Assembly (NCBI GenBank): GCA_028821605.1
Contig: JAPPFM010000036.1
Span: 1-62,703, forward strand
From: Candidatus Poribacteria bacterium
GTDB lineage: Bacteria; Poribacteria; WGA-4E; WGA-3G
Length of the DNA stretch: 62,703 nt
Direction of reading: 5' to 3'
The notes beneath the pieces were generated by a model. The model saw nothing but the letters and a program-made list of their open reading frames with translations, did no database searches and had not been told where the DNA came from. Positions within the stretch are counted from its first letter, which is position 1, and every line of letters begins with the position of its first letter. Both the position numbers and the translations under genes were made by a program. Positions 22,029 to 62,354 of this stretch are shown here, piece after piece.

Positions 22029-23774
22029 ATGGCGAATTATCAAGAATTGGCAAATCTGGTTTGGAATGTAGCGGATGATGTTCTTAGAGGACTTTTCAAA
22101 CCGCACGAATACGGCGATATCACCCTCCCATTTCTGGTGCTGCGCCGATTAGACTGCATCTTAGACGGGGACGGACGAAAAGAGAAAGCCATTGATACCT
22201 ACAACGAGTTTAAGGACAAAGTGTCCGAAGAAATGCTACCGCCAATTATCCTGAGAGCGGTAAACACCAGTTTCTACAACACCTCCCAGTACGACCTATC
22301 CCGACTGACAGAAGATCCGACCAATATCCGCCTCAATTTTGAGAATTACCTCAACGGATTCAGTCAAGACGTGCGCGACATCATTGAAAACTTCAATCTC
22401 GACGGTTTTATTGAGCGACTGGACAGAAACAACCGTCTGTTCATCTTCTGCGATAAATTTACCGAAATCGATTTACATCCCGATAAGGTGGATAACCATA
22501 CGATGGGACAGGTCTTTGAGGAGCTGCTCCGTCGATTCTCGGAGATGTCCAACGAAACCAGCGGGGAACACTACACGCCACGGGATGTGGTGCGGTTATT
22601 GGTCTCGCTATTGTTTGCGGAACACCGTGAGGACCTACGCGGGCAGGGAGTTATCCGCAGTATCTTTGATCCGTGTTGTGGGACAGGCGGTATGTTGACC
22701 GTTGGAAAGGAGTACTTCCGCGAGCAGATTAATCCGAATGCTGACATTCGGTTGTTGGGTCAGGAACTGAACGCACAGACCTACGCAATCTGCAAGTCGG
22801 ATATGCTCATCATTGGCGAGGACCCCGACAATATTCGACACGGTTCCAGTCTCTCCGAGGATCAATTTCAAGGGCAACGTTTTGATTATATGATAACGAA
22901 TCCACCCTTCGGCGTGAGTTGGAAGTCCGATGAAGCGGCAGTGAAAGCGGACGCGCAAACCGTCAACGGCAGATTCTCAGCAGGTACGCCTCGCGCCTCC
23001 GATGGGGCGTTGCTGTTCCTGCAACACATGCTCTCCAAGATGGAGGACCGTGGGAGTCGAGTCGGAATTGTCTTTAACGGGTCGCCGCTCTTTACGGGGG
23101 ATGCCGGTAGCGGTGAGAGTGAAATCCGACGCTGGATCATTGAAAACGACTGGTTGGAGTGTATTATTGCGCTCCCTGAAAAGTTGTTCTTCAACACCAG
23201 TATTGCCACCTATATCTGGATCTTAACGAACCGAAAATCGGCGGCACGACAGGGGAAGGTTCAACTGATCAACGCTGTTGACTTCCGCGACGAGATGAAA
23301 AGGAACCTCGGAGATAAGAACGTTTTTGTTTCCGATAGCCATATCCGTCAACTGGTAGAATTGTACACCAACTTTGAAGAGACCGAACACTGCAAAATCT
23401 ATCCAAATGAGTTTTTCGGCTACACGAAGGTGACGGTTGAAAGACCGCTCATCGAAAAGCAGGAAATTTTGGGTAAGGAGATGGAGGTTGTCGTTCGGGA
23501 CAAGCAGCGGAAGCCAAAACCGGATCCCAAGCTGCGAGACTTTGAGCGCGTTCCCCTCACAGCGGATATTGATGATTATTACCAACAAGAAGTGAAACCG
23601 CACGTGCCGGACAGTTGGATAGACAGAAAGAAGGATAAGGTGGGTTACGAGATTAACTTCAATCGGTATTTCTATCAGTACACGCCACTGCGTTCGCTGG
23701 AAGAGATTGCAGAGGAAATACTGGCTCTTGAGCGGAAAAGTGAAGGCTTGTTGAATGAGGTGTTATCGATTTGA
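22029..23774 (+). CDS. hsdM: Type I restriction-modification methyltransferase subunit HsdM
   Basis: A 581-residue N6-adenine methyltransferase subunit. The N-terminal helical region (NLVWNVADDVLRGLFKPHEY) is typical of HsdM. Residues 178-190 read SGEHYTPRDVVRL; the S-adenosylmethionine motif is DPCCGTGG (214-221) and the catalytic motif IV is NPPF (291-294). With HsdS it methylates the recognition sequence and, with HsdR, forms the restriction complex. AAGGAAA precedes the start. hsdS does not follow directly: about 3 kb of other genes is interposed, which is unusual because hsdM and hsdS are normally adjacent. Confidence 0.97.
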   Translation: MANYQELANLVWNVADDVLRGLFKPHEYGDITLPFLVLRRLDCILDGDGRKEKAIDTYNEFKDKVSEEMLPPIILRAVNTSFYNTSQYDLSRLTEDPTNIRLNFENYLNGFSQDVRDIIENFNLDGFIERLDRNNRLFIFCDKFTEIDLHPDKVDNHTMGQVFEELLRRFSEMSNETSGEHYTPRDVVRLLVSLLFAEHREDLRGQGVIRSIFDPCCGTGGMLTVGKEYFREQINPNADIRLLGQELNAQTYAICKSDMLIIGEDPDNIRHGSSLSEDQFQGQRFDYMITNPPFGVSWKSDEAAVKADAQTVNGRFSAGTPRASDGALLFLQHMLSKMEDRGSRVGIVFNGSPLFTGDAGSGESEIRRWIIENDWLECIIALPEKLFFNTSIATYIWILTNRKSAARQGKVQLINAVDFRDEMKRNLGDKNVFVSDSHIRQLVELYTNFEETEHCKIYPNEFFGYTKVTVERPLIEKQEILGKEMEVVVRDKQRKPKPDPKLRDFERVPLTADIDDYYQQEVKPHVPDSWIDRKKDKVGYEINFNRYFYQYTPLRSLEEIAEEILALERKSEGLLNEVLSI

Positions 23775-23853
23775 GGCACAGCCCAACCGATTCGGTGCAC
23801 CCGCGCCACAACTGAACTTTGGACGTTAAGGGACTATTGTAGGGAGATTTAAA

Positions 23854-24675
23854 ATGATTTTATCTACTGTTTACAGTATTCTGATCCTTGTTTTCCTCGT
23901 AATATTTCTGATAAATAGCATTCGGCATAGAAAAGAGATAAAAATTTATCTGAAATATGGCGTTTTGTTTGCTGTCATTGCTATTGCGCTTGACATTATT
24001 GTTGTGGTATTGATTCCGAATTTCTTTGAAATAATGCCTCTTCCGGCGTTGCTCGCAATAGATGCGGTTGTTTTTGTGCGAACCCTAATATTCACGTGCT
24101 TGGGGATCTATTATTGTACGAAACTGGGAATCGTAGAGATTCCACTGCTAAGAAGGCTTTCCCGTAAAATTGATAATTTTGAAATGATTACGTGGCGGAG
24201 TTACATGACCGCCGTAATCTTAGTGGTCGCTGGGGCTATACTGTTTTCTGTTCTTCTGTTTAAATTGACTTCTCCACAGTTATCGGAGGCTATGAAGCAA
24301 TTATCCAAAGATCAGGGTGCCAGATTGGGCATTAGTAGCGAGCCAACAGTGCTGACAGCTTTCGTTGTTATAGCCTTTGCGTTTGGTGAAGAAATACTTT
24401 TTCGGCTTGGTATTCAGAACTATTTGGCACAGCAATTTCGACTCAATGGAAATAAGTATTGGGTCGCTGTTGTTTTAACTTCAGCGATCTGGGCACTGGC
24501 GCATGCGAATATTCTCACGCCTGAATGGATAAAGATTGTTCAAATTTTCCCATTCGGAATAGCATTGGGGTTCCTTTTCAAAAAATATGGCTTAGAGAGT
24601 TGTATATTTGCGCACGGAATTTTCAATCTTAGTATGATGGGTATAGGTCCGTATCTCATCACATATACAGGTTGA
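23854..24675 (+). CDS. CPBP-family intramembrane glutamic protease
   Basis: A 273-residue polytopic membrane protein of the CAAX protease/bacteriocin-processing (Abi) family. The three catalytic motifs are intact: EEILFR with Glu179, Glu180 and Arg184; His217 in ALAHANI; and His254 in FAHGIFNLS. Eight or so hydrophobic helices are visible. Relatives cleave membrane-bound peptides or proteins; in defence contexts some have abortive-infection roles. It is more AT-rich than hsdM. It lies between hsdM and a duplicated remnant of the hsdM 3' end, indicating that it arrived by recombination at the hsd locus. GGGAGA precedes the start. Its role with the restriction system is inference only. Confidence 0.88.
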   Translation: MILSTVYSILILVFLVIFLINSIRHRKEIKIYLKYGVLFAVIAIALDIIVVVLIPNFFEIMPLPALLAIDAVVFVRTLIFTCLGIYYCTKLGIVEIPLLRRLSRKIDNFEMITWRSYMTAVILVVAGAILFSVLLFKLTSPQLSEAMKQLSKDQGARLGISSEPTVLTAFVVIAFAFGEEILFRLGIQNYLAQQFRLNGNKYWVAVVLTSAIWALAHANILTPEWIKIVQIFPFGIALGFLFKKYGLESCIFAHGIFNLSMMGIGPYLITYTG

Positions 24676-24691
24676 AAGAACGGATCAGAGG

Positions 24692-24739
24692 TTGGCGTGG
24701 AAAAGTGAAGGTTTGCTGAATGAGGTTTTGGGGTTCTGA
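24692..24739 (+). pseudogene. Duplicated remnant of the hsdM 3' end
   Basis: Codons here read LAWKSEGLLNEVLGF-stop, against LERKSEGLLNEVLSI-stop at the true end of hsdM (23730-23774). About four fifths of the last 42 nucleotides are the same, with mostly third-base differences, so this is the tail of a related but not identical hsdM gene. It marks the right border of a segment, containing the CPBP gene, inserted or swapped by recombination. Confidence 0.65.
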
Positions 24740-24865
24740 AGTCTCTGGTATAACGAAGGGAGCAGAGTAGATCGGGATTCATAATTTACGTGGTAAACAG
24801 TAGAAAATGTGGTATAATATCTCAAGGTTAAAAATTTTTAATCTTGATCCGCGTCTGGGGAAAGA

Positions 24866-25372
24866 ATGACTGTGGAGGAGATGTCTAAGGAATACCCGAA
24901 CGAATGGTTGTTTATTATGGGGGGAAATAATATGATAAAATCAGCAGCAGAAACGCTTTTTGAAAAAGGCTTTGAGCAAGGATTTGAAGTAGGATTTGAG
25001 GAAGGCAGAATAATAGGCAAAACAAAAGTTATTCAGCAAGACATTACAAAAAATATTGCAAAAATTGTTGAACAGGGCATTGCAATAAATATTGAGCAAG
25101 ACATTGAAAAAGACATTGAAAAAGTTATTGAGCAAGCCAAGGTAAAAGTTATTCAGATGGGCATTGCAAAAGACATTGAAAAAGTTATTGAGCAAGCCAA
25201 AGCAATAGGTGTTGAGCGAGACATTGCAGAAAACACTGATAAAACTATTGAACAGGGCATTTTAATGGGTATTGAGCAGGGCATTGAAAAAATTATTGAG
25301 CAAGTCAAAGTCGAGGTATATCGTGCTTGGCACACAGATTGGGAAAATGAAGACAGGCAGCAGATGCCATAA
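24866..25372 (+). CDS. Repeat-rich helical protein of unknown function
   Basis: A 168-residue protein. The first 16 residues (MTVEEMSKEYPNEWLFI) look like a small domain I have seen heading other short proteins of this type of organism, but this is from memory and uncertain. Residues about 32-155 consist of degenerate units such as IEKDIEKVIEQAK, GIAKDIEKVIEQAK and GILMGIEQGIEK, predicted as a long charged helix or coiled coil. At DNA level a 33-base stretch is exactly repeated at 25108-25140 and 25168-25200. A TGGTATAAT extended -10 sits at 24810-24818. The internal tail resembles in style the tandem-repeat tails of Rpn proteins. No enzymatic motif is seen. Confidence 0.65.
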   Translation: MTVEEMSKEYPNEWLFIMGGNNMIKSAAETLFEKGFEQGFEVGFEEGRIIGKTKVIQQDITKNIAKIVEQGIAINIEQDIEKDIEKVIEQAKVKVIQMGIAKDIEKVIEQAKAIGVERDIAENTDKTIEQGILMGIEQGIEKIIEQVKVEVYRAWHTDWENEDRQQMP

Positions 25373-25429
25373 TAGCACCTTAAGTAAATGCAGACTTCAT
25401 TAACATAGTTCTTACGGCAGAGTACCCAA

Positions 25430-25759
25430 ATGAAAAAGCCAAAACTTGTCGTTGAACACCTCATGAACGACCGATTACTCGTCCAATCTGTTGCGACCTC
25501 AAAGTCTTTTGATTGGCTCAAATGGTTAGAGACAGAAGAGCTTGTCGAATTTTTTGCTGAGTTGTTCAAGCTGCTAACGCGAATCTCAGAAGGCAAAAAA
25601 GACGCTGAAACACTTTCAATTTTTCTCTCCGAATGGCGTGAAACCGCATTGATTAATTCAGAACCAGATGTCTTAGCAGATATTGTTGAAGCACAACAAG
25701 AGTTAGCCGCAGACGGTGGCAAAGAGTGGGCACAGATCAAAAAGGAAATTGGACTGTGA
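25430..25759 (+). CDS. Probable antitoxin of a RelE-type toxin-antitoxin pair
   Basis: A 109-residue acidic protein. The C-terminus (IVEAQQELAADGGKEWAQIKKEIGL) is of a kind seen at the ends of type II antitoxins, and a RelE-like toxin frame begins within its last bases. The N-terminal part is helical; no clear DNA-binding fold is visible, so identification rests mainly on position. Its frame is intact whereas the toxin carries a stop. It may still bind related toxins encoded elsewhere. Confidence 0.55.
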   Translation: MKKPKLVVEHLMNDRLLVQSVATSKSFDWLKWLETEELVEFFAELFKLLTRISEGKKDAETLSIFLSEWRETALINSEPDVLADIVEAQQELAADGGKEWAQIKKEIGL

Positions 25760-26036
25760 ATTCCATACCATATCCACTTGCACGCTTCCAAAAAAGGTGG
25801 AAAATTTTATCAGAAGGTTGGAACAAGAAACACAAGTGCGAATTAGTACTGCTTTTGAGTACATCCTTGGATCTCCCTTTCGGCATGAAAATCCTACAAC
25901 CATCAAACCATTACATGGACAGAAGAAAGGGCTTTATCGTTATCGGATAGGGTATCTCCGTTTCATTTAACAAGTCGACAGAGAAGAACGAATAATCCAT
26001 ATTGTACAAATTGACAATCGTGGTGATATTTATTAA
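25749..26036 (+). pseudogene. RelE/ParE-like toxin gene broken by an in-frame stop
   Basis: Reading from TTG 25749, which overlaps the antitoxin end by 11 bases, gives LPKKVENFIRRLEQETQVR, IKPLHGQKKGLYRYRIGYLRFI, then TAA at 25968-25970, then in the same frame QVDREERIIHIVQIDNRGDIY and a normal stop at 26034. RelE/HigB-type toxins have a continuous R-I-G-x-x-R-x-I-Y-x-V...H-R-G-D-V-Y ending, so the TAA replaces the expected Tyr codon (one base change). The lost 22 residues include the conserved C-terminal strand, so the product should be inactive. Confidence 0.75.
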
Positions 26037-26064
26037 GCGTTGTACTGCCATAAAAGGATAAACT

Positions 26065-26667
26065 ATGTTCAATCAATTTTTTAATTTCCTTTTTATGTTT
26101 TGTGTTCCTTTTATGATTATTGGTTGTAGCACAATTTTTTCAGCGCAGGAATGGAGTGATAACTACGCGCTAATGGATGGAGTGCAATCAACAAGCCCGC
26201 AAATGATTGATGGAAATCTTGAAACTATAGGAGAAGCAGCGTTTACATCAGATAACACAATATATGCATTAAATGATGAAGGAGATTTTGTCCGAAATGA
26301 TTCTATAGTGGTTGTTTCATTACCAGAAAAGAAAAAAATTTATAGGATTATACTTCATTCGGATAATTTAAAACATTTTATCGTATACGTGGATAAAGGT
26401 AGAAAAACAAAAAGTGAAGATTGGCATCGTATTATAGAGATGCGAGATGTAATATCAAAAAAAATTGATCTCAAACTCAAGATGCCCTATTATACACATC
26501 AGATTAAGATTCGTATATTGAAGACTCATCCACAAGTTCAAAAATATGGAATAGCCACAATAGGATCTGGAAGGCTTGATAGAACAATATTTACCAATCG
26601 TAGATCTATTCATTTACCGGGCAGAATACAGGAAATTGAGATTTATGGTTTTAAAACTATAGAATAG
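26065..26667 (+). CDS. Lipoprotein with a discoidin-like region, function unknown
   Basis: A 200-residue protein with a hydrophobic leader and lipobox I-I-G-C (Cys21). The mature part (ALMDGVQSTSPQMIDGNLET, IVVVSLPEKKKIYRIILHSD, RIQEIEIYGFK) has the order of a galactose-binding/discoidin beta sandwich: ligand loop, central strands and a last I-E-I-Y-G strand. Such folds bind carbohydrate or act as adhesion modules. The gene is AT-rich compared with hsdM and hsdR. AAGGA precedes the start. It is an odd neighbour for a restriction system and probably came with the inserted segment. Confidence 0.65.
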   Translation: MFNQFFNFLFMFCVPFMIIGCSTIFSAQEWSDNYALMDGVQSTSPQMIDGNLETIGEAAFTSDNTIYALNDEGDFVRNDSIVVVSLPEKKKIYRIILHSDNLKHFIVYVDKGRKTKSEDWHRIIEMRDVISKKIDLKLKMPYYTHQIKIRILKTHPQVQKYGIATIGSGRLDRTIFTNRRSIHLPGRIQEIEIYGFKTIE

Positions 26668-26740
26668 TATGAACAGTATTAAGAAAAATAAAAAATCCGA
26701 GATGTTCTCGCGAAATGAAGTTGACATGGGAAAAAGAAAA

Positions 26741-26777
26741 ATCCGCGTCATCCGTGTAATCCGCATAATCCGCGATT
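26741..26777. repeat. ATCCGCGT-type microrepeat upstream of hsdS
   Basis: Four approximate 10-base units (ATCCGCGTC, ATCCGTGTA, ATCCGCATA, ATCCGCGAT). Just outside coding sequence; purpose unknown. Confidence 0.5.
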
Positions 26778-26799
26778 CAGACAAAGAGGTGTTGGGATT

Positions 26800-28140
26800 A
26801 TGAAACGTTACCCTGAATATAAAGAGAGTGGTGTGGAGTGGATTGGGGGGATGCCGAAACATTGGGAAGTCTTGAAAGTGAAACGTGTTGGTTTGAGTAA
26901 TCCTTCCAAGAATAATCCTAAGACGACTTGTCTTAAAGATCAGCAGGTGGTTTTCCTTCCAATGGAGCGGGTTCATACTGATGGGACGATTGACCAAGAA
27001 TTAAGGTTGCCTTACTCTCAACTGAAAAATGGCTACACCTATTTTGAGGAAGGTGATATTCTCATAGCAAAAGTAACTCCTTGTTTTGAAAATGGAAAGA
27101 TTGTCCACATAAAGAATTTGGCAACTTCAGTTGGGTTTGGCTCGACTGAGTTTATTGTCATTCGTCCTGATCTGCAAACGGTATTTCCACCTTTTTTGTA
27201 TTATATTTTCCGTAGTAAACCACTTCGTAGCATTGGTAAACATTTTATGACCAGTGCGGTTGGTCTGAAACGAGTCCCAACTGAGTTTGTTGAAAATTTT
27301 CGGGTTCCAATACCGGCTTACCAAGAACAAACCCAAATCGCCAACTTTCTTGACCGGAAGACCGGACAGATTGACGAGCTCATCCGCATTAAAGAACGAC
27401 AGATAGAACTGCTGCAGGAACAACGCACGGTGCTGATAAATCAGGCAGTGACAAAAGGACTTGACCCGAATGTGGACATGAAACTGTCGGGTATGGAGTG
27501 GATTGGGGAGATACCAGCGCATTGGGAAGTCAATAGACTCAAATACGTTGCGAAGATACTACCAAGTAATGTTGATAAACATATCTATCCAGATGAGATC
27601 CAGGTCAGATTATGCAATTATACCGATGTTTATTACAACGATTATATTACAGTTGATACCGTTTTGAAAAAGGGTAGTTGTAAGGAAAGTGAGTTTGTGC
27701 AATTTGTTTTGAGGAAAGGCGATGTTATAATTACCAAAGACTCTGAAACCCCAGATGATATTGGCGTTCCAACTTATGTCAAAGACGATTTAAACGATGT
27801 TGTGTGTGGGTATCATTTAACATTGATTAGACCACTTGCTTGTCGTGGCGAGTTCATTTTTAGGTTTATTCAATCCGATAGGACGAGAAGATATTTTGCG
27901 GTGAATTCAAATGGAATTACCAGATATGGCTTGGGAAAAGCATCAATTGAAAATCTGCTCTTACCCATACCCCCTGATTCCGAACAACGCCAAATCGCCA
28001 ATTTCCTTGACGACAAAACCGAGCAGATTGACGAACTGATAGCCGCGGAGCAGCGAAAGATCGAACTCCTCAAAGAATACCGTCAATCCCTCATCTCCGA
28101 AGCGGTGACCGGCAAGATAGATGTACGAAATGAGGTTTAG
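26800..28140 (+). CDS. hsdS: Type I restriction-modification specificity subunit HsdS
   Basis: A 446-residue DNA-recognition subunit with two target-recognition domains separated by conserved helical spacers. Each half starts with a related motif (SGVEWIGGMPKHWEVLKVKR and LSGMEWIGEIPAHWEVNRLK) and ends with a coiled-coil spacer (IANFLDRKTGQIDELIRIKE; IANFLDDKTEQIDELIAAEQ). The internal duplication is the normal HsdS design and lets each domain bind half of a bipartite site. The sequence recognised cannot be read. The gene is more than 3 kb downstream of hsdM and 1.3 kb upstream of hsdR. The start ATG has only a weak GAGGTG in front. Confidence 0.95.
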   Translation: MKRYPEYKESGVEWIGGMPKHWEVLKVKRVGLSNPSKNNPKTTCLKDQQVVFLPMERVHTDGTIDQELRLPYSQLKNGYTYFEEGDILIAKVTPCFENGKIVHIKNLATSVGFGSTEFIVIRPDLQTVFPPFLYYIFRSKPLRSIGKHFMTSAVGLKRVPTEFVENFRVPIPAYQEQTQIANFLDRKTGQIDELIRIKERQIELLQEQRTVLINQAVTKGLDPNVDMKLSGMEWIGEIPAHWEVNRLKYVAKILPSNVDKHIYPDEIQVRLCNYTDVYYNDYITVDTVLKKGSCKESEFVQFVLRKGDVIITKDSETPDDIGVPTYVKDDLNDVVCGYHLTLIRPLACRGEFIFRFIQSDRTRRYFAVNSNGITRYGLGKASIENLLLPIPPDSEQRQIANFLDDKTEQIDELIAAEQRKIELLKEYRQSLISEAVTGKIDVRNEV

Positions 28141-28185
28141 ATCCTATCTTGTTATTTTCTGAGTTGGCGTGTGATACATATCGCG

Positions 28186-28215
28186 TTGATTTTTTCGGTG
28201 TTTCTATGCTATACT
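28186..28215 (+). promoter_or_regulatory. Candidate promoter for the Rpn-family gene
   Basis: TTGATT (28186-28191), 18-base spacer and TATACT (28210-28215), about 40 bases before the gene. Confidence 0.4.
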
Positions 28216-28256
28216 TTGCAAAACGTTTTTTCAACACTTGGAAGTTATAGACATCT

Positions 28257-29375
28257 ATGCCCGAAACCCAAGAGACTCAGATAGAACACTTCCCTGACCG
28301 TAGCCTCAGACGCTTGCTTCAAGACAGGGAATATGTGCGGGGGTTAGTCCAAATTATCGCACCGGACATCGAGGTGTTTCTCGACTTCAGCCGGATTACA
28401 TACGAAAAAAGAAGTTTTATCTCTAAAGCCCTGCAAGAACGCGAGTCAGATGTCCTACTGAGTGTCCCGTTTCAAGAAGGCACGGATGCCACAGATACCG
28501 ATGCGCTGCTCATCTATATCCTCATTGAACATCAATCTACAGTGGATAAAACGATGGGGTTTCGGTTATTGTCTTACATGATGCAAATCTGGGAGTCGCA
28601 ACGGCGGGAATGGGAAACGGCGAAGATTCCAGAAAATGAAAGATTTTTACAGCCGATCCTGCCAATTCTGCTTTATACGGGCGACCGTCCGTGGACAGTG
28701 CCGGTGTCCCTGACGACGCTTATGGATGTTCCTGAAATTTTGGAGCGTTTCGTCCCGAGTTTTGACACGCTGTTTTTAGGGGTCAAGGAGACTGAGGCGG
28801 AGGCATTGACGCGATCCGGACATCCGTTGGGCTGGTTGTTGCATGTGCTTCAAAAGGAGCATTCGGACAAGACAGAGATAAGCGAAGCACTAACAGATGC
28901 CGTGTCGCATTTAGCGTCAGTAGATGAGGATTTCGCACCGCAAATTGCGGAGGCACTCCGGTATTTTGTGCAGTTGATATTCCATCGGCGTTCTCTTGAC
29001 GAGCGCGATGCGTTAGTAGATATTATTAGACAACATATTCAAGACGATAAGGAGTTAGAGACAATGGCACAGACAACGGCTGAGTTTCTCATAGAACAAG
29101 GCAAAGCGGAAGGTAAAGTGGAAGGCAAAGCGGAAGGTAAAGCAGAAGGCATAGAACAAGGCAAAGCAGAAGGTAAAGCGGAAGGTAAAGTGGAAGGTAA
29201 ACAGGACGCGGTCCTCAAACTCCTGCAGCTCCGATTTCAGAACGTGCCTGAAGTGCTTTCACGTGAAATCAGCAATATCCACAATTTACTGCTCCTCGAC
29301 GCGCTTTTAGAGCAAGCGATGACCGCGCAAAGTTTAGATGAAATAGATACGCATTTCTCCTTAAACTCTCCCTGA
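28257..29375 (+). CDS. Rpn-family PD-(D/E)XK nuclease with variable-repeat tail
   Basis: A 372-residue protein of the recombination-promoting nuclease / transposase_31 family. The nuclease core shows Asp65 in RESDVLLSVPF, and Glu91-His-Gln93 in YILIEHQSTVD, the family's D...E-x-Q form of the PD-(D/E)XK site. After residue about 275 comes a low-complexity run of K-A-E-G and K-V-E-G units, then a helical C-terminal domain (AVLKLLQLRFQNVPEVLSRE). In E. coli, Rpn genes also make a short C-terminal product from an internal start that restrains the nuclease and acts in phage defence. A good internal start is present here (29049-29066). It sits between hsdS and hsdR, so a defence role is likely. Confidence 0.88.
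   Translation: MPETQETQIEHFPDRSLRRLLQDREYVRGLVQIIAPDIEVFLDFSRITYEKRSFISKALQERESDVLLSVPFQEGTDATDTDALLIYILIEHQSTVDKTMGFRLLSYMMQIWESQRREWETAKIPENERFLQPILPILLYTGDRPWTVPVSLTTLMDVPEILERFVPSFDTLFLGVKETEAEALTRSGHPLGWLLHVLQKEHSDKTEISEALTDAVSHLASVDEDFAPQIAEALRYFVQLIFHRRSLDERDALVDIIRQHIQDDKELETMAQTTAEFLIEQGKAEGKVEGKAEGKAEGIEQGKAEGKAEGKVEGKQDAVLKLLQLRFQNVPEVLSREISNIHNLLLLDALLEQAMTAQSLDEIDTHFSLNSP
29049..29066 (+). promoter_or_regulatory. Internal ribosome binding site and ATG within the Rpn gene
   Basis: AAGGAG (29049-29054) lies nine bases before an in-frame ATG (29064-29066, codon 270, reading MAQTTAEFLIEQG). Translation from here would yield a 103-residue C-terminal protein comprising the repeat tail and last domain, like the short RpnS antitoxins. 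The match to the ribosome binding consensus is direct; its use is inference. Confidence 0.55.
29091..29200 (+). repeat. 12-bp coding tandem repeat (KAEG units) with 60-bp higher-order copy
   Basis: Units of the form GGCAAAGCGGAA / GGTAAAGTGGAA are repeated in frame about eight times. ATAGAACAAGGCAAAGC occurs at both 29091 and 29151, showing a 60-bp block duplication. Whole-unit gain or loss would keep the frame and change tail length. Confidence 0.85.
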
Positions 29376-29447
29376 AATGGACGATTCGGAGTTACGTGAT
29401 TCACGGGGTCCAGAAAGAACTCTTATCTATTGCACGAGGTGTAGACC

Positions 29448-32441
29448 GTGCCGACGTATACAGAACAAAATTTTGAGGACCACATTGAAGCACATCTGAA
29501 TCGGTCGGGCTACCAGTCATTACAATCTTCCCATTACAATAAATCCCGTTGTCTGATACCCAATGAGACGCTGAAGTTTATTCAGGACACGCAACCGGAA
29601 GTGTATCAGAGACTGGAACGCCAGTACGACGCGGATACACCAGATAAATTCCTTGATCGTGTCAGCAGAGAGATTAAAAATCGCGGGGTATTGGACGTGC
29701 TTCGGAAAGGGATTAGGGATAGAGGTTGTCATTTTAAGCTGACCTACTTCCTACCATCAAGTGGCATGAACCCCGACCACCAGCAACTTTACGCGCAGAA
29801 TCGATTCTCCCTCATTCGACAGTTAAAGTATTCAGAGAAGAACGAGAAATCCCTTGATATGACCTTGTTCCTCAATGGGTTGCCGTTGGTGACAATGGAA
29901 CTGAAAAATAGCCTCACCGGTCAGACGGTAGCAGATGCGGAGAAACAGTATCGGACGGATCGCGATCGAAGAGAACCGTTGTTCCGATTCAAGCGGTGTC
30001 TGGTGCACTTTGCGGTGGGTAACGAGAAGGTTTCCATGACGACCCACTTGCAAGCGGGTGGGACACGATTCTTTCCGTTTAACAAAGACATCGAAAACCC
30101 TGTGAATCCGAACGGACACAAGACCGCTTATCTGTGGGAGGACATCCTACAGCCCGATAACCTGATTGAACTCATCAACAACTTCATTCATGAGCAGGAG
30201 ACCACGGAGAAGGTCTACGACCCTAACAGTCGGATGGTGACAGATAAGAAGTCCCGCGTGCTTGTTTTCCCGCGATACCATCAGTTGGACGTGATTCGCC
30301 AGTTAAAAGAGGCTGTTATCGCAGAGAAGGTCAGAAATGACTACCTCATCCAACACACCACCGGTAGCGGCAAATCCAACTCCATCGCATGGTTGGCGCA
30401 CCTACTGACGCATCTGTATAGTTCTTTGGACACTACAAATCGGATCTTTGATTCCATCATTGTCGTGACAGATCGACGCGTGCTTGACAGGCAGCTGCAG
30501 AACACAATCAGGCAAGTCGCACAAGTTGAAGGCGTTGTGCATGCTGCTGATAAGAACTCTGCCCAACTTAGGGAGTTCCTTGAATTCGGCAAAGACATCA
30601 TTATCTCTACAATTCAGAAGTTCAGCGTGATAGCGGAGGAAATTGGTAAGCTCAAAAGCAAAACCTTCGCTGTGATTATCGACGAAGCGCACTCCTCGCA
30701 GACCGGTGAATCTGCAAAAAACCTCAGAGTTTCGCTTTCAAAAGGGATTGAGAAAGACATAGAAGATGATGACCCCGACGAGGTAGAATCAGATATAGAC
30801 GCTAAAATCCTTGAGGTGATCGAACAGCGAAGAATGCGGGATCATATCTCTTATTTCGGTTTCAGCGGTACACCAAAGAACAAGACTTTAGAATTGTTTG
30901 GGCGGAAGAACGAAGAAGGAATATTTGTCCCGTTTCATACCTACTCGATGCACCAGAGTATCAGCGAAGGGTTTACGTTGGACGTGCTGCAGAACTACAC
31001 CACCTTTAAAAGATATTTTGAGCTGGTTAAAAGTGTGTCGGAGGATAAAGAGTACGAGAAGGCGCGAACGCTGCGAGCATTGACCAATTACGTTGATCTG
31101 CAACCGCACAGCATTGAGACCAAGACCCGGATTATGTTGGAACACTTCACCGAACACACTGCAAAGACGATTGAAGGGAAAGGACGGGCGATGTTGGTTA
31201 CGCCGTCCCGACTGCACTGCGTTAGATACAAGCAGGAATTCGATAAACAAATGAAGGAGATGGGGCTTCCCTACGGGTGTCTGGTGGCATTCAGCGACAC
31301 GGTGCACGACACTGATAACGGGGTAGATTACACGGAAAACGGGATGAATAAATTGCCACCAAGCACTTCGATTGAGCACAGTTTCAAGGAGCCGCAGTAT
31401 CGGATTCTAATTGTCGCGAGCAAGTTCCAGACGGGTTTTGATGAGCCGCTGCTACAGACAATGTACGTTGATAAGCGGTTGGATGGGCTGCAATGTGTCC
31501 AGACCTTGAGCCGTTTGAATCGCGTCGCCAAGGGTAAGACAGATACGCTGGTACTCGATTTTGTGAACGAACCTGAGCAGATACAAGCAGCGTTTCAGCA
31601 ATACTACCAGACTACGACACTCGCCGAGGAGACCGACCCGAATCGGTTGTATGACCTACAGCGTCAGTTGGAGGCGTTTGATCTCTATGATGAAGGTACC
31701 ATCGATCAATTCTGTCGTATCTTTTATGACCCTGATCAGCCCGCCGAACTTTTACAGGGCATTCTTGATCGCGTTGTTGGGAGATGGTCAGAACTTGAAA
31801 CAGATGATAGAGAAGAATTTCGTTCTACCTTACAGGGTTACATTCGCCTCTACGGATACATCTCACAGTTGATTACCTTTACGGATGTAGCGTTGGAAAA
31901 GTTGTATATCTTCAGTCACAGCCTCAACAAGAAGCTGCCGAAACGGGAGCACCCCGACCTACAAGATGTCCTTGATTCTGTGGACTTGGATTCGTTTCGC
32001 GTGCAGAGGATACATGAGGAATTACAACTCTCCCTTGAAGAGGAAGATAGCGAGGTCGAAGGATTTGGGGGTGATGTCGCTCCCCGCAGGGACCCCGAAC
32101 AGGATTTCCTCTCCAATATCATTGACACGCTGAACAGTACCCATCACACGGATTTTACTGCAGAAGATAAGGTTGACCTTGCGAGCATTCACCAAAAAAT
32201 GCACGAAAACGAGGAACTTCGACAGGTAATCGCCGGAGATAATACGGAGACCAACAAAGAATATAAGTTTAATCAGGTGTTTGATGAGATTTTATTGAGT
32301 TTCGTCAATAGTAGGTTGGATCTCTTCACGAAATTATCACAACCAGAGATCAATAAGGATCTCAAGCGCCAACTCTATCAAGCCTATCTTGAGCAATCGT
32401 CCTCTTCTGTAGAAGCGACCTCCCCGTCGCGATCTTCCTAA
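29448..32441 (+). CDS. hsdR: Type I restriction enzyme motor/nuclease subunit HsdR
   Basis: A 997-residue protein that translocates and cuts unmodified DNA. The N-terminal PD-(D/E)XK nuclease has Asp137 (LDMTLFLNG) and the E-x-K pair Glu151/Lys153 (VTMELKN), followed by the conserved QYRTDR. The helicase has Walker A TGSGKS (305-310), DEAH (412-415) and a downstream SKFQTGFDEP and QTLSRLNR region. The C-terminal helical domain binds HsdM/HsdS. GTG at 29448 is chosen because GAGGTG lies seven bases upstream and the next ATG is far inside the nuclease domain. It ends the hsd locus; no frameshift is seen. Confidence 0.96.
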   Translation: MPTYTEQNFEDHIEAHLNRSGYQSLQSSHYNKSRCLIPNETLKFIQDTQPEVYQRLERQYDADTPDKFLDRVSREIKNRGVLDVLRKGIRDRGCHFKLTYFLPSSGMNPDHQQLYAQNRFSLIRQLKYSEKNEKSLDMTLFLNGLPLVTMELKNSLTGQTVADAEKQYRTDRDRREPLFRFKRCLVHFAVGNEKVSMTTHLQAGGTRFFPFNKDIENPVNPNGHKTAYLWEDILQPDNLIELINNFIHEQETTEKVYDPNSRMVTDKKSRVLVFPRYHQLDVIRQLKEAVIAEKVRNDYLIQHTTGSGKSNSIAWLAHLLTHLYSSLDTTNRIFDSIIVVTDRRVLDRQLQNTIRQVAQVEGVVHAADKNSAQLREFLEFGKDIIISTIQKFSVIAEEIGKLKSKTFAVIIDEAHSSQTGESAKNLRVSLSKGIEKDIEDDDPDEVESDIDAKILEVIEQRRMRDHISYFGFSGTPKNKTLELFGRKNEEGIFVPFHTYSMHQSISEGFTLDVLQNYTTFKRYFELVKSVSEDKEYEKARTLRALTNYVDLQPHSIETKTRIMLEHFTEHTAKTIEGKGRAMLVTPSRLHCVRYKQEFDKQMKEMGLPYGCLVAFSDTVHDTDNGVDYTENGMNKLPPSTSIEHSFKEPQYRILIVASKFQTGFDEPLLQTMYVDKRLDGLQCVQTLSRLNRVAKGKTDTLVLDFVNEPEQIQAAFQQYYQTTTLAEETDPNRLYDLQRQLEAFDLYDEGTIDQFCRIFYDPDQPAELLQGILDRVVGRWSELETDDREEFRSTLQGYIRLYGYISQLITFTDVALEKLYIFSHSLNKKLPKREHPDLQDVLDSVDLDSFRVQRIHEELQLSLEEEDSEVEGFGGDVAPRRDPEQDFLSNIIDTLNSTHHTDFTAEDKVDLASIHQKMHENEELRQVIAGDNTETNKEYKFNQVFDEILLSFVNSRLDLFTKLSQPEINKDLKRQLYQAYLEQSSSSVEATSPSRSS

Positions 32442-45589: not shown

Positions 45590-46042
45590 GTGAAGAAACA
45601 GAGATCTCCGCTCTTATCGACGCGGCAAGATTGGATAAGTGTGGAGATTTTCACGCTGTTTGTCGTAACGGTTATTTATGCTATTATCGTGTGGCGATAT
45701 CAGAGTGGTAAAGCACAAGAGACGATGGAAACGGTGTTTGTCACGATGCGACATGTTTCCGCCGCGATCTTGCCTATGATTGTTGGGATTGTAGGCACTT
45801 TTGAGATAGTAGGTGAAATCATGATTAGATTGACAAGTCTGATAGAAAAAACGAGAGCCGAAGGGAAGGCAGAAGGCAAAGCCGAAGGTATTGCTGAAGG
45901 GAAGGCAGAAGGCAGAGCGGAAACGATTGCCGAATTCCGTCAGTATTTGGCATGGGAGAAGCGGCGAGATGAGGCGGCTGCTAACAACCAACCTTTTAAC
46001 GAACCACCACCGCCCAAGCCCGAAGGTTATCCTGAAGAGTAG
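45590..46042 (+). CDS. Two-helix membrane protein with Rpn-type AEG repeat tail
   Basis: A 150-residue protein. GTG 45590 follows AAAGGAG by nine bases. Two hydrophobic helices are at about 18-36 and 58-78; then a run of A-E-G units (RAEGKAEGKAEGIAEGKAEG, about 88-110) and a charged, Pro-rich C-terminus (NEPPPPKPEGYPEE). The repeat is similar to that in the Rpn nuclease at 28257, but there is no nuclease domain. Function is unknown; the tail could associate with Rpn-like tails or simply extend into the cytoplasm. It has its own promoter and stands before a toxin-antitoxin remnant region. Confidence 0.7.
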   Translation: MKKQRSPLLSTRQDWISVEIFTLFVVTVIYAIIVWRYQSGKAQETMETVFVTMRHVSAAILPMIVGIVGTFEIVGEIMIRLTSLIEKTRAEGKAEGKAEGIAEGKAEGRAETIAEFRQYLAWEKRRDEAAANNQPFNEPPPPKPEGYPEE

Positions 46043-58070: not shown

Positions 58071-61000
58071 TTACTTCTGTATTAGCATTTTCTTCGTAGC
58101 CGAGAAATCACCTGCCTTTAATGTATAAAAATAAACACCGCTTGCGACGGGCTCCCCTTGGGCGTTTCTGCCATTCCAATACGCCGCACGCGCCTTGCTC
58201 TGATAGAATCCCGCACGCTGGTGCCCCAAGTCCAAATACCGCACGACGCGCCCGTTGATGTCATAGATTGTCACTCGGACATCCGCAGACTCCGCTAACT
58301 GATAGGGTATCCATGTTTCTGGATTAAACGGATTCGGATAGTTCGGAAGCAGGAGATTCTCGTCTGGTGCCGCGACACCCCTTGCCGGGGCGGCGGCAAT
58401 TGTTGTGGTATCGGTATCCGCACCACCGATAGCAACAGCACTCGGTGCCATCAAGTTAGAGACGATTTCTTCGTACCCCATGCCGTCAAGATTCCTTCGC
58501 CGGATATTCCCCGCGCCGTCTGACCAATAGACTTTGCCAGCTGCCGTGTCAACAGCAATACCGTAGGGGACGGCTTTCATGGTGAATGCATCTTCGACAC
58601 CAGAGCCGTCGAGGTTCGCGCTTCGGACGCTGCCACCGTTGTCTGTCTGTTCTGTCCAATAGACCTTATCATTACCGGCGGCGATGCCACCGAGGGTACC
58701 TGTGCCTGTTGCGAGGGTGCGAACGACTTTCGGGTTTCCTGTAACGTTCGCAAACCGAACGTTACCCTCTGCCTCTGTCCAATAGACTCTCCCCGAGGCA
58801 ACGGCGATGCTCATCGGCGCACTCACATTTGGAATGAAGTTGTATTCAAACCCTGTGCCATCGACGTTTATCCGTTGGATCCTATTCTGACTGTTTGATA
58901 GATACAGTTTACCGTTAGCACTATCATAAGCGATGCCGAGCGGTACGCTTCGGAGCTCCCGAAGCACCTGTGCGTTTGTGCCATCAAGGTTTGCTCTATT
59001 AATCGTCCTGGCATTTTCATCGGTTTGCGCTGTCCAATAGATTTTCCCGCCAGCGGTATCAACGGCAACATCGTTCGCACGTGCAGCGATCCGTTCCACT
59101 TCCGTACCCGCGAGACGATAGAGTGTGCCCCCATCTATCCAATACATCGGGGGTCTGTCGGCTGCATCTACGTGGATCTGTGTCGTTTTTCTCACCGCTG
59201 CGGGCGAGGCATCGTCCGCCGGTGCTTGGGACGGAATTAAGACAAAGGTCCCTCCGAATACTGTGATGTCTTCAATGTTTGAACCGTCAAGATTCGCACG
59301 CCAGATTTTAAAGCGAAAGCTATCTACGTCCCGACCTGCCCAATACATCTTCCCACCTGGGACATCTAAGGCAAGTTGCCGTATGGACGCTTGCGTCACA
59401 AGGGTTTGTACGTTTGATCCGTCGAGGTTCGCACATTGGATTATAGACATCCACGGACTCTTCGAGTGTCTCCAATATATCTTCCTGCCTGACACATCTA
59501 CGGTAAATTCATGTGTGTGGCTTACCTTGATTGTCCCGAGAGTTTCTACGCGAGTGCCATCAAGATTGGCACGCCGAATAGGCAAATTCTCATTTTCGGG
59601 CTTGCCTATCCAATACATCTTCCCACCTGATATATTTAAGGTGCTCTCGCGCGCCCACAATAGGTCGTTCAGCGTTCTTAGCTTTTCTACGTTTGATCCG
59701 TCGAGATTTGCACGATGGATTCCAAGCCCACTAGTGTCCACCCAATATATCTTTCCACCTGATACGTCTAAGATAAGGTCCGAGAAGCCGTGGCCGTACT
59801 TGCTTTCCACGAGCGTTTGTACGTTTGATCCGTCGAGGTTCGCACGCCGGATCTTAGTAGAGACTAATGAATAATGTGATGGGCGTATTTGCTTGTACTC
59901 CTTTTCTATCCAATATATCTTCCCGCCTGACACATCTACGGTAAGATGCGATATGGTTCCCTTTCCTACTACGAGCGTTTGTACGTTTGATCCGTCGAGA
60001 TTCGCACGATGAATGTTAGATGAATTACTACCGATAGTATCGTATGTCCAGTACATTTTCCCGCCTGACACATATAATCTACCAGGACGCCATGCATCTA
60101 CATGATCCCCTACCTTTTCTGTCGGCACAAGGGTTGTGACGTTTGAACTATCAAGGTTTGTACGTTGAATGCCCTCCCTGGTCTCGTAATATATGGCTGG
60201 TTGTGACGGATCTATTGGTCCAGTGGGTCTGCGGTTGTCAAACAAGACCTGAGTGCCGTTTGCTTGGATGGCGGGGATATGCGTGTTGATGGCAGCAGCA
60301 TTCAACGGATTACCCCTAAGGTCCAAGTACTTGAGTTGTGTCAGCCTTGTGAGTGGTGATATATCTGAGATGCTATTGTTACTAAGAAGCAACTCTACCA
60401 GTTGTGTGAGTCCAGCGAGTCGGGATACATCCGAGATGCTATTGTTACCCAGAATCAAACTCGTCAGTTGTGTAAGTCCAGCCAGTGGGGATACATCCGA
60501 GATGCTACTGCCCCAAATATCCAATTCCCTGAGGTTTCTGGCGTGTTCAAACCCAGTGAGGTCTCTTATCTCGGTCCCGGGGTCGGGCCTATGATAAATA
60601 TAAAAACCTGTCAGCTTCAGCATTGTGTTCGTTGTGATTTCGTTGCCAATCCTTAACTGGACAGCTGCCCTTAAGTTCGCATCGGGTATATGGACCGGCC
60701 GGGAGGGCAGGGAGAACCAAACCTGAGTGCCGTTTGCTTGGATGGCGGGGATATGCGTGTTGATGGCAGCGTCGTTCAGCGGATTGTTCAGAAGCCCCAG
60801 AAATATCAAATGTGTTAATCCCACGAGAGGAGACACATCCGAAATAGAATTGTCCCTAAGACCCAGGGACCTTAAGTTCGTCAATCCTGCGAGAGGAGAT
60901 ACATTTGAAATAGAAGTGTTGGGAAGAGTCAGATGCTCTAAGTTCGTCAATCCTGTGAGAGGAGATACATTTGAAATAGAAGTGTCCCTAAGATCCAATA

Positions 61001-62354
61001 CTTGTAGGTTTGTCATTCCAGCCAGGTCGGATATATCCAAAATAGAACTGGAACTAAGAATCAAACCTGTTAGATTGGTCAGCCCAGCCAAGGGAGACAC
61101 ATCCGAAATAGAAGTGTTGTGAAGAATCAGAGTTCTTAGGTTTGTCATTCCAGCCAAGGGAGACACATCCGAAATAGAGGGAGTATTACCCAAATTTAAT
61201 AATGTCAGATTGCTTGCCTGTTCAAGACCCGTGAGATCTCTTATTGGAACATCCCCCGGAACATAAAGGGCTCGTAAGCCCAGCATCGCCTCCTTGGTGA
61301 GCACGTCATCAGGCCCCAAACCAATGGTTTTCCGCACGGCATCGGCTAAATTCCGATCCAAGATTGACTCAATACCGGTACTCGGTAGTAAGTCAGAGAT
61401 ATCAAGATCAAAATAGAAATTAGCAATATTTCCATGGCTGTTAATAATGGAAAGTTGTACAGTGTCTATCGGGCGTAAGTTGGTGGTGATAAAATTAACT
61501 GTGTCGCTGCGGCTGCCGTTTAATGTTTGGTAGTCCATCAAAGTCCCATCAAAGGTGGGGATCCATTTTATCAACTGGACTTGATGGAGACCGTCAGGAT
61601 CGGTTACCTCAAAACGCAAACGTATAGCATTGGGTGGAGCTGCAAGGCTTGGGGGAAGCATTTTAACTTCTGGGTACCCAGCGTTCACAGCAGTTTGGTT
61701 AGGGTTGAAAGCAGGGTGAACATCCAGCCACTCCGCAGCAGAGAAAGAGGTTGTCATTGGATCTGAAACATGTAAAGATGTCTTCCAATTACCATCTGGA
61801 CGAACAGAATCATGGCTGAGCCCAAAACAATGTCCGAGTTCGTGGGCAGCAAGAGTGGCATCAGCGATATCCGCCGAAGTATTATAAGTATAAACCGTTG
61901 CTATTCGGCCACCTCCTGTAGGTGTGAAATCAACGCTGTGATCTATGAATACAAGATAATAGTCATCCTGTGACACATCACCCGATGACACATCAGCCCA
62001 CTCAGCGATTTCATCCTTTACTCTGGAGTGCTCATCCCCTTCTCCATCATAATGCGAAGAAGCAAATTTTCCCTTCACACGGTGCAAAACTGCCTGCCCA
62101 TTGGCATCGGTTTCAATCTCGAAAGTTTTTGGGCCAAACCCGTGGTTCTCCATATGCTCTGCATAGAACCGTTGTGTGTCTTTTATCAACTTATCCATTG
62201 TCGCCTCTATGTTCTCTATAGGTCGGTAATTTGGGGGCAGTTCGCGCGGAACAAAGTGAACCGCTTTCACAATCGGTGAACGCGCTTGCGTAGAACCAAG
62301 CGGCAGGAAACTGAATAGAACAATTAGCGTGAGAAATAAGCGTTTGAGCTGCAT
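58071..62354 (-). CDS. Large secreted mosaic protein: metzincin protease, leucine-rich repeats, YWTD propellers, sorting tail
   Basis: A 1427-residue protein. Residues 1-24 are a signal peptide. A zinc protease domain follows, with HELGHCFGLSHD at 171-182 (His171, Glu172, His175, His181) and a Met-turn DPMTTSF with Met200, the metzincin layout. Two blocks of internalin-like leucine-rich repeats (about 375-550 and 600-710; SISDVSPLAGLTNLRSLGLR) flank a linker. Then come many YWTD/LY-type units (GGKIYWVDTSGLGIHRANLD) to about residue 1330, enough for two beta propellers. The last 90 residues (LLPNYPNPFNPETWIPYQLA, GVYFYTLKAGDFSATKKMLI) are a type IX-like C-terminal sorting domain. AGGAGG precedes the start. 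It is probably a surface or secreted adhesin-protease. Confidence 0.92.
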   Translation of the reverse strand: MQLKRLFLTLIVLFSFLPLGSTQARSPIVKAVHFVPRELPPNYRPIENIEATMDKLIKDTQRFYAEHMENHGFGPKTFEIETDANGQAVLHRVKGKFASSHYDGEGDEHSRVKDEIAEWADVSSGDVSQDDYYLVFIDHSVDFTPTGGGRIATVYTYNTSADIADATLAAHELGHCFGLSHDSVRPDGNWKTSLHVSDPMTTSFSAAEWLDVHPAFNPNQTAVNAGYPEVKMLPPSLAAPPNAIRLRFEVTDPDGLHQVQLIKWIPTFDGTLMDYQTLNGSRSDTVNFITTNLRPIDTVQLSIINSHGNIANFYFDLDISDLLPSTGIESILDRNLADAVRKTIGLGPDDVLTKEAMLGLRALYVPGDVPIRDLTGLEQASNLTLLNLGNTPSISDVSPLAGMTNLRTLILHNTSISDVSPLAGLTNLTGLILSSSSILDISDLAGMTNLQVLDLRDTSISNVSPLTGLTNLEHLTLPNTSISNVSPLAGLTNLRSLGLRDNSISDVSPLVGLTHLIFLGLLNNPLNDAAINTHIPAIQANGTQVWFSLPSRPVHIPDANLRAAVQLRIGNEITTNTMLKLTGFYIYHRPDPGTEIRDLTGFEHARNLRELDIWGSSISDVSPLAGLTQLTSLILGNNSISDVSRLAGLTQLVELLLSNNSISDISPLTRLTQLKYLDLRGNPLNAAAINTHIPAIQANGTQVLFDNRRPTGPIDPSQPAIYYETREGIQRTNLDSSNVTTLVPTEKVGDHVDAWRPGRLYVSGGKMYWTYDTIGSNSSNIHRANLDGSNVQTLVVGKGTISHLTVDVSGGKIYWIEKEYKQIRPSHYSLVSTKIRRANLDGSNVQTLVESKYGHGFSDLILDVSGGKIYWVDTSGLGIHRANLDGSNVEKLRTLNDLLWARESTLNISGGKMYWIGKPENENLPIRRANLDGTRVETLGTIKVSHTHEFTVDVSGRKIYWRHSKSPWMSIIQCANLDGSNVQTLVTQASIRQLALDVPGGKMYWAGRDVDSFRFKIWRANLDGSNIEDITVFGGTFVLIPSQAPADDASPAAVRKTTQIHVDAADRPPMYWIDGGTLYRLAGTEVERIAARANDVAVDTAGGKIYWTAQTDENARTINRANLDGTNAQVLRELRSVPLGIAYDSANGKLYLSNSQNRIQRINVDGTGFEYNFIPNVSAPMSIAVASGRVYWTEAEGNVRFANVTGNPKVVRTLATGTGTLGGIAAGNDKVYWTEQTDNGGSVRSANLDGSGVEDAFTMKAVPYGIAVDTAAGKVYWSDGAGNIRRRNLDGMGYEEIVSNLMAPSAVAIGGADTDTTTIAAAPARGVAAPDENLLLPNYPNPFNPETWIPYQLAESADVRVTIYDINGRVVRYLDLGHQRAGFYQSKARAAYWNGRNAQGEPVASGVYFYTLKAGDFSATKKMLIQK

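What the first reader, a model, noticed from the sequence alone, without database searches (positions are those of the whole stretch)
22029..32441. Type I restriction locus expanded with a protease, an Rpn nuclease and toxin-antitoxin genes
hsdM, hsdS and hsdR are all intact and in one direction, but hsdM and hsdS are separated by about 3 kb and hsdS and hsdR by 1.3 kb. In the gaps lie a CPBP-family protease, a helical repeat protein, an antitoxin with a dead RelE-like toxin, a lipoprotein and an Rpn-family nuclease. CPBP and Rpn families are each known from defence contexts, so this could be a defence island built inside one operon, or a composite system in which the extra proteins modify restriction.
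Basis: partly seen in the sequence, partly recalled or inferred. Interest (0 to 1): 0.7.

Follow-up and report, generated by a model that had tools for sequence, protein, structure and literature searches.

The report
Nuclease toxin inside restriction operon
In a genus of sponge-dwelling bacteria, a DNA-cutting restriction operon carries a second, self-restrained DNA-cutting toxin gene lodged between two of its genes, plus a slot where other anti-virus genes come and go; the arrangement is a new variant of a layout already known in other bacteria.

Summary
An intact type I operon (hsdM 22029-23774, hsdS 26800-28140, hsdR 29448-32441) of a Candidatus Poribacteria genome has a 3.0-kb M-S gap and a 1.3-kb S-R gap holding the listed genes. 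Comparison with about 45 loci of relatives shows two different things. (1) The S-R gap is a conserved module. A YhgA-like Rpn gene, or its remnant, sits there in 22 of 32 same-genus genomes. It has its own promoter, an intact nuclease motif, and an internal Shine-Dalgarno plus ATG that starts a 103-residue C-terminal protein. That matches the RpnL toxin/RpnS antitoxin of E. coli. Exact 4-residue repeats, separate rpnS copies and toxin-only deletions with rpnS kept fit this. The module persists where hsdM, hsdS or hsdR has decayed, so it is self-contained rather than a restriction subunit. (2) The M-S gap is a turnover slot. Relatives carry none, or known defence genes (Argonaute pair, HEC-03, PD-Lambda-4). 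The window's CPBP, dead RelE pair and lipoprotein are transient cargo with no defence-model match. So it is a defence island built in one operon, not a composite enzyme. Precedents: PrrC, DarTG2 and TgvAB in type I operons.

The parts
22029..23774 (+). hsdM, type I methyltransferase subunit
   Evidence: PF12161 and PF02384; PADLOC MTase_I 3e-246; orthologues 77-94% identical at the same site
23854..24675 (+). CPBP/Rce1-like membrane protease, M-S gap cargo
   Evidence: PF02517 6e-17; EE..R motif in EEILFR read directly; at this place in 3 genomes only
24866..25372 (+). E/Q-rich repeat protein, damaged copy; conserved part starts at Met 24929, C-terminal end lost
   Evidence: relatives 80-84% identical, 166-217 aa ORFs with a longer C end; in 9 of 38 genomes, single copy, at the hsd locus in the 8 that were placed
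25430..25759 (+). antitoxin-like ORF of a RelE-type pair
   Evidence: no family match; homologues in 28 of 38 genomes, mostly elsewhere
25760..26036 (+). dead RelE-like toxin remnant
   Evidence: in-frame TAA 25968-25970 followed by RelE-like end; start in another frame
26065..26667 (+). lipoprotein-like ORF, M-S gap cargo
   Evidence: signal and Cys read directly; 90% relative only in L034 and a piece in L080
26800..28140 (+). hsdS, specificity subunit
   Evidence: PF01420 two stretches; PADLOC 1.3e-128; target domains differ between near relatives
28131..28144 (+). end of hsdS with the GAGGT that serves as hsdR ribosome site in empty junctions; left copy of the duplicated junction
   Evidence: TGAGGTTTAGATCC; empty junctions read CGAGGTNTAGACC-ATG
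28186..28215 (+). own promoter of the Rpn gene: TTGATT-18-TATACT with TG before the second box
   Evidence: conserved upstream of 21 of 23 copies
28257..29375 (+). rpnL: YhgA-like PD-(D/E)XK nuclease, predicted toxin
   Evidence: PF04754 6e-30; D65, E91-x-Q93 conserved in 20 copies; AlphaFold2 model pLDDT 78
29049..29054 (+). internal Shine-Dalgarno AAGGAG for rpnS
   Evidence: 39 of 39 Rpn genes have one here against 9 of 216 other internal Met codons
29064..29375 (+). rpnS: internal start, predicted 103-residue antitoxin with 4-residue repeats
   Evidence: M270 invariant; separate rpnS genes with the same start in relatives
29380..29434 (+). remnant of the C end of an ATPase gene that once filled this junction
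   Evidence: matches the end (..IRSYVIPVIQEQPSSI*) of the ATPase gene still present in L040 and L060
29435..29447 (+). right copy of the duplicated hsdS-end/hsdR ribosome site
   Evidence: CGAGGTGTAGACC before GTG
29448..32441 (+). hsdR, restriction/translocation subunit
   Evidence: PF04313, PF18766, PF22679; EcoR124 HsdR 8e-18; 73-87% identical orthologues

Best explanation
This is an ordinary type I restriction-modification operon used as a chassis for further defence genes, with two insertion points. Between hsdS and hsdR lies a self-contained Rpn toxin-antitoxin module: RpnL, a PD-(D/E)XK DNA nuclease, and RpnS, its C-terminal domain made from an internal start, which binds and restrains RpnL until infection upsets the balance. 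Entry of genes at this junction duplicated the end of hsdS, which carries the hsdR ribosome site, so hsdR stayed translatable. Between hsdM and hsdS lies a second, fast-turnover slot where whole defence genes and other cargo are swapped together with the specificity gene. In this genome that slot holds a CPBP protease, a damaged repeat protein, a dead RelE pair and a lipoprotein, none of which need act in restriction. Shown: gene content, conservation, internal start signal, repeats, scar, persistence without restriction. Inferred: toxicity, inhibition by RpnS, phage trigger, swapping by homologous recombination.
For: Rpn or its remnant at the S|R junction in 22 of 32 same-genus genomes, empty in 10, and the junction empty in outgroup family f4. 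Internal SD at the RpnS start in 39/39 Rpn genes against 9/216 other internal Met (Fisher 4e-17 and 1e-22), although the residues there vary in the paralogues. All 40 RpnS N-terminal stretches differ by exact multiples of 4 residues. Catalytic D65, E91, Q93 kept. dN/dS of the nuclease 0.13 with hsdR intact and 0.12 with hsdR broken; of stand-alone rpnS 0.11. Promoter fused straight to rpnS after loss of the nuclease in L032, L037, L045, L048, L040. M-S gap of relatives: HEC-03, REase-APAZ plus short Argonaute, PD-Lambda-4. Duplicated junction. Biology of RpnL/RpnS: PMC10327210.
Against: No experiment on any Poribacteria Rpn. The extra rpnS copies never match the repeat number of the neighbouring RpnL (0 of 8; chance alone gives none 30% of the time), so they may not be its antitoxin. 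dN/dS contrasts mostly reflect history before hsdR was lost. The Rpn copies are related by descent, so 22 of 32 are not independent events. Foldseek found no confident PDB match for the model, and RpnA-S (7TH0) was not hit. The M-S cargo of the window itself has no defence match.
Confidence: 0.76

Rival explanations
1. PrrC-like guard: the Rpn nuclease is held silent by the type I enzyme and released when a phage protein blocks restriction, so the two form one coupled system.
For: Same kind of place as toxins embedded in other type I operons; PrrC is silenced by EcoprrI; Rpn is kept at the junction in most of the genus.
Against: Rpn is intact where hsdR is a fragment (L060, L061, L062, L065) and where hsdM and hsdS are largely gone (L062, L065). 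It carries its own restrainer with a conserved start signal and its own promoter.
Confidence: 0.1
2. Chance passenger: Rpn genes are mobile and one simply landed here and was inherited, without any benefit of the position.
For: Rpn genes are numerous in these genomes; all hsd-linked copies form one 77-92% group, so a single arrival explains them; junction empty in 10 genomes.
Against: Purifying selection and no broken frame in the 20 full copies examined; retained while neighbouring cargo turned over and restriction decayed.
Confidence: 0.2
3. Recombination engine: RpnL cuts DNA and drives the swapping of hsdS and cargo at this locus.
For: The family was named for promoting RecA-independent recombination (PMC12707154 reference list); the locus is full of duplicated hsdS ends and hsdR deletions.
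Against: M-S cargo and varied hsdS also occur where no Rpn is at the junction (L043, L051, L052, L055); Zhong et al. find no sign of transposase action.
Confidence: 0.07
4. Composite enzyme: CPBP, repeat protein and Rpn are working parts of this restriction system.
For: One direction, short spacers, single block.
Against: Compact M-S-R operons with no extra genes in L042, L049, L050; different genes in most other relatives; hsdM, hsdS and hsdR conserved without them.
Confidence: 0.03

Closest known systems
E. coli RpnL/RpnS toxin-antitoxin genes (rpnA-E, rpnP2; PMC10327210)
   Same: YhgA-like nuclease, internal start for the C-terminal antitoxin preceded by a Shine-Dalgarno, variable 4-residue repeats, occasional separate downstream rpnS gene
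   Different: Here the gene lies inside a type I operon; separate rpnS copies never match the neighbouring RpnL repeat number; orphan rpnS behind the rpnL promoter is common
DarTG2 between hsdS and hsdR in enteropathogenic E. coli (RRDM island, PMC12255303)
   Same: A toxin-antitoxin pair that acts on DNA placed between hsdS and hsdR; the authors call this site a potential recombination hotspot
   Different: Unrelated toxin (ADP-ribosyltransferase), two separate genes, an RptR repressor upstream
EcoprrI with PrrC (PMC3874165, PMC2610378)
   Same: A toxin gene embedded in a type I operon
   Different: PrrC is an anticodon nuclease silenced by the type I enzyme; Rpn is a predicted DNA nuclease with its own antitoxin and survives loss of restriction
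TgvAB in the type I operon of Vibrio cholerae VPI-2 (PMC11411939) and GmrSD/RloF-type inserts
   Same: A second anti-phage system embedded in an hsd operon at the S-R side
   Different: Modification-dependent restriction enzyme, not a toxin-antitoxin

Membership tests
Type I restriction-modification system | HsdM, HsdS and HsdR with their conserved domains, complete and in one operon-like block | tested here: met
   DPCCGTGG, NPPF, TTGSGKS, DEAH and E-L-K motifs read directly
Type I restriction-modification system | Sequence-specific methylation and restriction activity | not testable with these tools
   needs methylome or plasmid assay
Rpn (YhgA-like) toxin-antitoxin | PF04754 nuclease domain with D and E-x-Q active site | tested here: met
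   PF04754 6.4e-30, cut-off 21 bits, score 104.7; D65, E91, Q93 invariant in hsd-linked copies; D65 and Q93 invariant, E91 nearly so, across 22 diverse copies
Rpn (YhgA-like) toxin-antitoxin | Internal translation start for the C-terminal RpnS | tested here: met
   SD plus ATG in 39 of 39 genes, 9 of 216 at other Met; translation itself not shown
Rpn (YhgA-like) toxin-antitoxin | Four-residue repeats of variable number in the first helix of RpnS | tested here: met
   40 of 40 stretches equal 1 modulo 4 in length; one long helix 264-326 in the model, though residues 281-307 are of low confidence
Rpn (YhgA-like) toxin-antitoxin | RpnS three-helix fold as in RpnA-S (7TH0) | tested here: inconclusive
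   Model has one long and two short helices but no PDB match to 7TH0 was found
Rpn (YhgA-like) toxin-antitoxin | RpnL toxic, RpnS neutralises it, phage protection | not testable with these tools
   needs expression in a laboratory strain
PrrC-type toxin guarded by its type I enzyme | Toxin is an anticodon nuclease with ABC ATPase domain | tested here: not met
   only PF04754 found
PrrC-type toxin guarded by its type I enzyme | Toxin depends on the restriction enzyme to stay silent | tested here: inconclusive
   intact Rpn beside broken hsd genes argues against it; a trans effect of other hsd loci is not excluded
Defence-in-defence embedding (HEC, TgvAB, DarTG2) | Recognised defence gene placed inside another defence operon | tested here: met
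   Rpn module in the S-R gap of the window; HEC-03, Argonaute pair and PD-Lambda-4 in M-S gaps of relatives; M-S cargo of the window itself has no PADLOC match

The most novel reading that the evidence does not exclude
RpnL in the S|R junction works as a second line tied to the type I enzyme: it is freed when a phage blocks restriction, while orphan rpnS genes in strains that lost the nuclease protect them from the RpnL of relatives or incoming DNA, so the locus carries both a weapon and its separately inherited immunity.
Probability: 0.12. Interest if true: 0.78.

Novelty: new variant of a known kind. Interest (0 to 1): 0.5.

Why it matters
It shows in one uncultured genus, with some 45 aligned loci, how a restriction operon gathers further defences without being destroyed: one slot holds a toxin-antitoxin module that outlives the restriction enzyme, the other is refilled again and again. 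The duplicated hsdS end that carries the hsdR ribosome site explains how a gene can enter the junction without silencing hsdR. The internal-start signal extends the RpnL/RpnS gene-within-gene from E. coli and Clostridioides to Poribacteria, on controlled sequence evidence, and the orphan antitoxins make a testable case of immunity without the toxin.

Tried and rejected
Codon choice at the internal KE site: AAGGAG in 20 of 20, but also in 37 of 45 other KE pairs, so not evidence by itself; replaced by the Met-wide control. First AlphaFold2 model with 7 near-identical sequences was useless (pLDDT 45). PDB sequence searches with Rpn and RpnS gave nothing useful; Foldseek gave no confident match, and middling VIA-align rows to restriction-like nucleases (EndoMS, Shedu, LmuA) are within noise; RpnA-S 7TH0 not listed. 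Matching of repeat numbers between RpnL and the adjacent extra RpnS: none of 8, but shuffles give none in 30%, so no conclusion. A strict pattern scan for the duplicated junction caught both copies in only 12 loci; the rest were read by eye, and L056 lacks the second copy in that form. Small PADLOC control on ten flank proteins gave only partial or generic domain matches, too small for a rate. The idea that the 24866 ORF is an RpnS relative (similar start MIKSAAETLFEKG) was not pursued: no support beyond the first residues. Rpn-hsd linkage outside Poribacteria was not surveyed here.

Full report
What is there. The window is a whole contig of a 5.99-Mb genome in 60 contigs whose relatives are Candidatus Poribacteria, known as sponge symbionts (habitat from general knowledge). 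The block 22029-32441 reads, all on the + strand: hsdM, CPBP protease, repeat protein, antitoxin, dead RelE, lipoprotein, hsdS, Rpn, hsdR. The three hsd genes are complete and carry the expected domains. PADLOC sees only hsdM, hsdS and hsdR; none of the extra proteins matches a defence model.

Orthologous loci. HsdR has 73-87% identical, near full-length orthologues in most genomes of the genus. I fetched the surrounding DNA from about 35 genomes and mapped the window genes on it. Where contigs are long enough the flanks are the same (dethiobiotin-synthetase-like gene upstream, hflK and hflC downstream), so this is one chromosomal site, with a few relocated or duplicated copies. hsdM is 77-94% identical and hsdR 73-87%, while hsdS target domains differ strongly even between close relatives, as expected for a specificity gene.

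M-S gap. In L042, L049 and L050 hsdM runs straight into hsdS. In most others 1 to 7 kb of cargo lies between them, and the cargo differs. Recognised defence genes are frequent: the ATPase plus 168-residue HEC-03A/B pair in L033, L041, L044, L052, L055 and L057 (8e-141 and 2e-26 for the L041 copies); a REase-APAZ protein plus short Argonaute in L037 and L045 (2e-159 and 8e-169 for L037); PD-Lambda-4_A in L052 and L055 (1e-38 for L055); DUF4268 and DUF2971 proteins (other members assigned by clustering). The window's own cargo is poorer. CPBP is in 5 of 38 genomes, 3 times after hsdM. The RelE-type antitoxin is a common family found mostly elsewhere, and its toxin here is dead. The repeat protein is in 9 of 38 genomes, and in the 8 of them placed here it lies at the hsd locus, but the window copy has lost its C end. 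So this gap is a slot with turnover, and the window caught it with mostly non-defence content.

S-R gap. Here the picture is opposite. A Rpn gene or its remnant occupies the junction in 22 of 32 same-genus genomes where at least one side can be read; in 10 hsdS is followed by hsdR after a few bases, as in the outgroup family f4. These Rpn copies form one group (77-92% identical) clearly set off from the many other Rpn genes of these genomes (66% or less). Counts are of genomes, not of independent events: the group is related by descent, and the hsdR tree shows full, reduced and absent states intermixed. The window, its nearest relative G008 (rpnS only) and G006 (rpnL plus extra rpnS) make a trio with three states.

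The junction. An empty junction reads CGAAACGAGGTTTAGACC-ATG: the ribosome site of hsdR (GAGGT) is inside the last codons of hsdS. In occupied loci that element appears twice, at the end of hsdS and again before hsdR (window 28131 and 29435), so hsdR keeps its ribosome site. The 55 bases before the second copy match the end of an ATPase gene that still stands at this place in L040 and L060, and in those two genomes the ATPase gene itself begins with a copy of the first codons of hsdR. I infer that a gene entered by duplicating the junction, and that Rpn later took over most of the space.

Rpn as toxin and antitoxin. Zhong and colleagues showed that E. coli Rpn genes make a toxic nuclease (RpnL) and, from an internal start, its C-terminal domain (RpnS), which binds and blocks it; RpnS carries variable 4-residue repeats, and separate rpnS genes occur downstream of some rpn genes (PMC10327210). 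Almost every part that can be tested in sequence is met here. The active-site residues D65 and E91-x-Q93 are kept. An ATG at residue 270 is preceded by a Shine-Dalgarno sequence in all 20 hsd-linked genes and in all 19 diverse paralogues (about 30-66% identical), against 0 of 94 and 9 of 122 other internal methionines (Fisher 1e-22 and 4e-17); in the paralogues the residues spelled there vary while the signal stays. M270 is invariant. The stretch between this Met and the conserved core varies only by exact multiples of 4 residues in 40 of 40 cases. Separate rpnS ORFs stand behind rpnL in L033, L034, L035, L041, L042, L047, L077 and L085. In L032, L037, L040, L045 and L048 only rpnS is left, and in these the rpnL promoter is joined almost directly to the rpnS start. 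No hsd-linked copy kept the nuclease and lost the tail, contig ends aside. Stand-alone rpnS evolves under the same constraint as the tail of rpnL (dN/dS 0.11 and 0.14). A model built on 22 sequences (pLDDT 78) shows the two active-site residues on adjacent strands and a long helix 264-326 followed by two short ones, as described for RpnA-S; structure searches were not decisive.

Coupled to restriction or not. The Rpn gene has a promoter-like site of its own (28186-28215), conserved in 21 of 23 copies. The gene is intact in loci whose hsdR is a fragment (L060, L061, L062, L065), two of which have also lost most of hsdM and hsdS. Nuclease dN/dS is 0.13 beside intact and 0.12 beside broken hsdR, with the caveat that most of this divergence predates the breakage. 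A toxin that needed the restriction enzyme to stay silent, as PrrC does, should not survive so. I therefore hold it for a self-contained module in a favoured place. Coupling in intact loci is not excluded.

Known or new. Toxins and defence genes inside type I operons are known: PrrC in EcoprrI (PMC3874165), DarTG2 between hsdS and hsdR with the remark that this site may be a recombination hotspot (PMC12255303), TgvAB and RloF (PMC11411939); rpn accompanies hsd genes in the enterobacterial immigration control region (PMC12707154). I found no report of Rpn placed between hsdS and hsdR in the papers searched. The finding is a new variant of a known kind.

Noticed in passing
L037:9207-12055 and L045 (hsdM-hsdS gap): A REase-APAZ protein plus short Argonaute pair sits inside the type I operon of two Poribacteria.
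   Followed up: partly
L060:4191-5891 and L040: An ATPase gene (AAA_35 type with a possible nuclease end) lies directly before hsdR and begins with a copy of the first hsdR codons, a sign of insertion by junction duplication.
   Followed up: partly
L085:4403-11160 and L037: Genome G004 has two hsd sites: an operon with full-length hsdR at 1.44 Mb and, at the old hflK site, hsdS-Rpn-rpnS with only residues 915-988 of hsdR left.
   Followed up: no
L034:8660-11179, L048, L057: A protein of about 810-839 residues in the hsdM-hsdS gap of three genomes has no Pfam or PADLOC match; by position a candidate new defence gene.
   Followed up: no
L059:1873-3078, L060:15001-16197, L061:1328-1995 (coordinates in hsdR orientation): hsdR has internal deletions that join its first codons to its last hundred or so, repeatedly and with different ends.
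   Followed up: no
window 24866-24920 and L036, L041, L043, L051, L060: A 75-residue ORF family starting MTVEEMSKKYPNEWLFI recurs in the hsdM-hsdS gaps; its first codons are fused to the damaged repeat protein in the window.
   Followed up: no
window 45839-45943: A stretch with the same KAEG-type repeats as the Rpn tail in another ORF of the window.
   Followed up: no
window 58071-62354: A 1427-residue protein with leucine-rich repeats and a secretion-type C-terminal domain.
   Followed up: no
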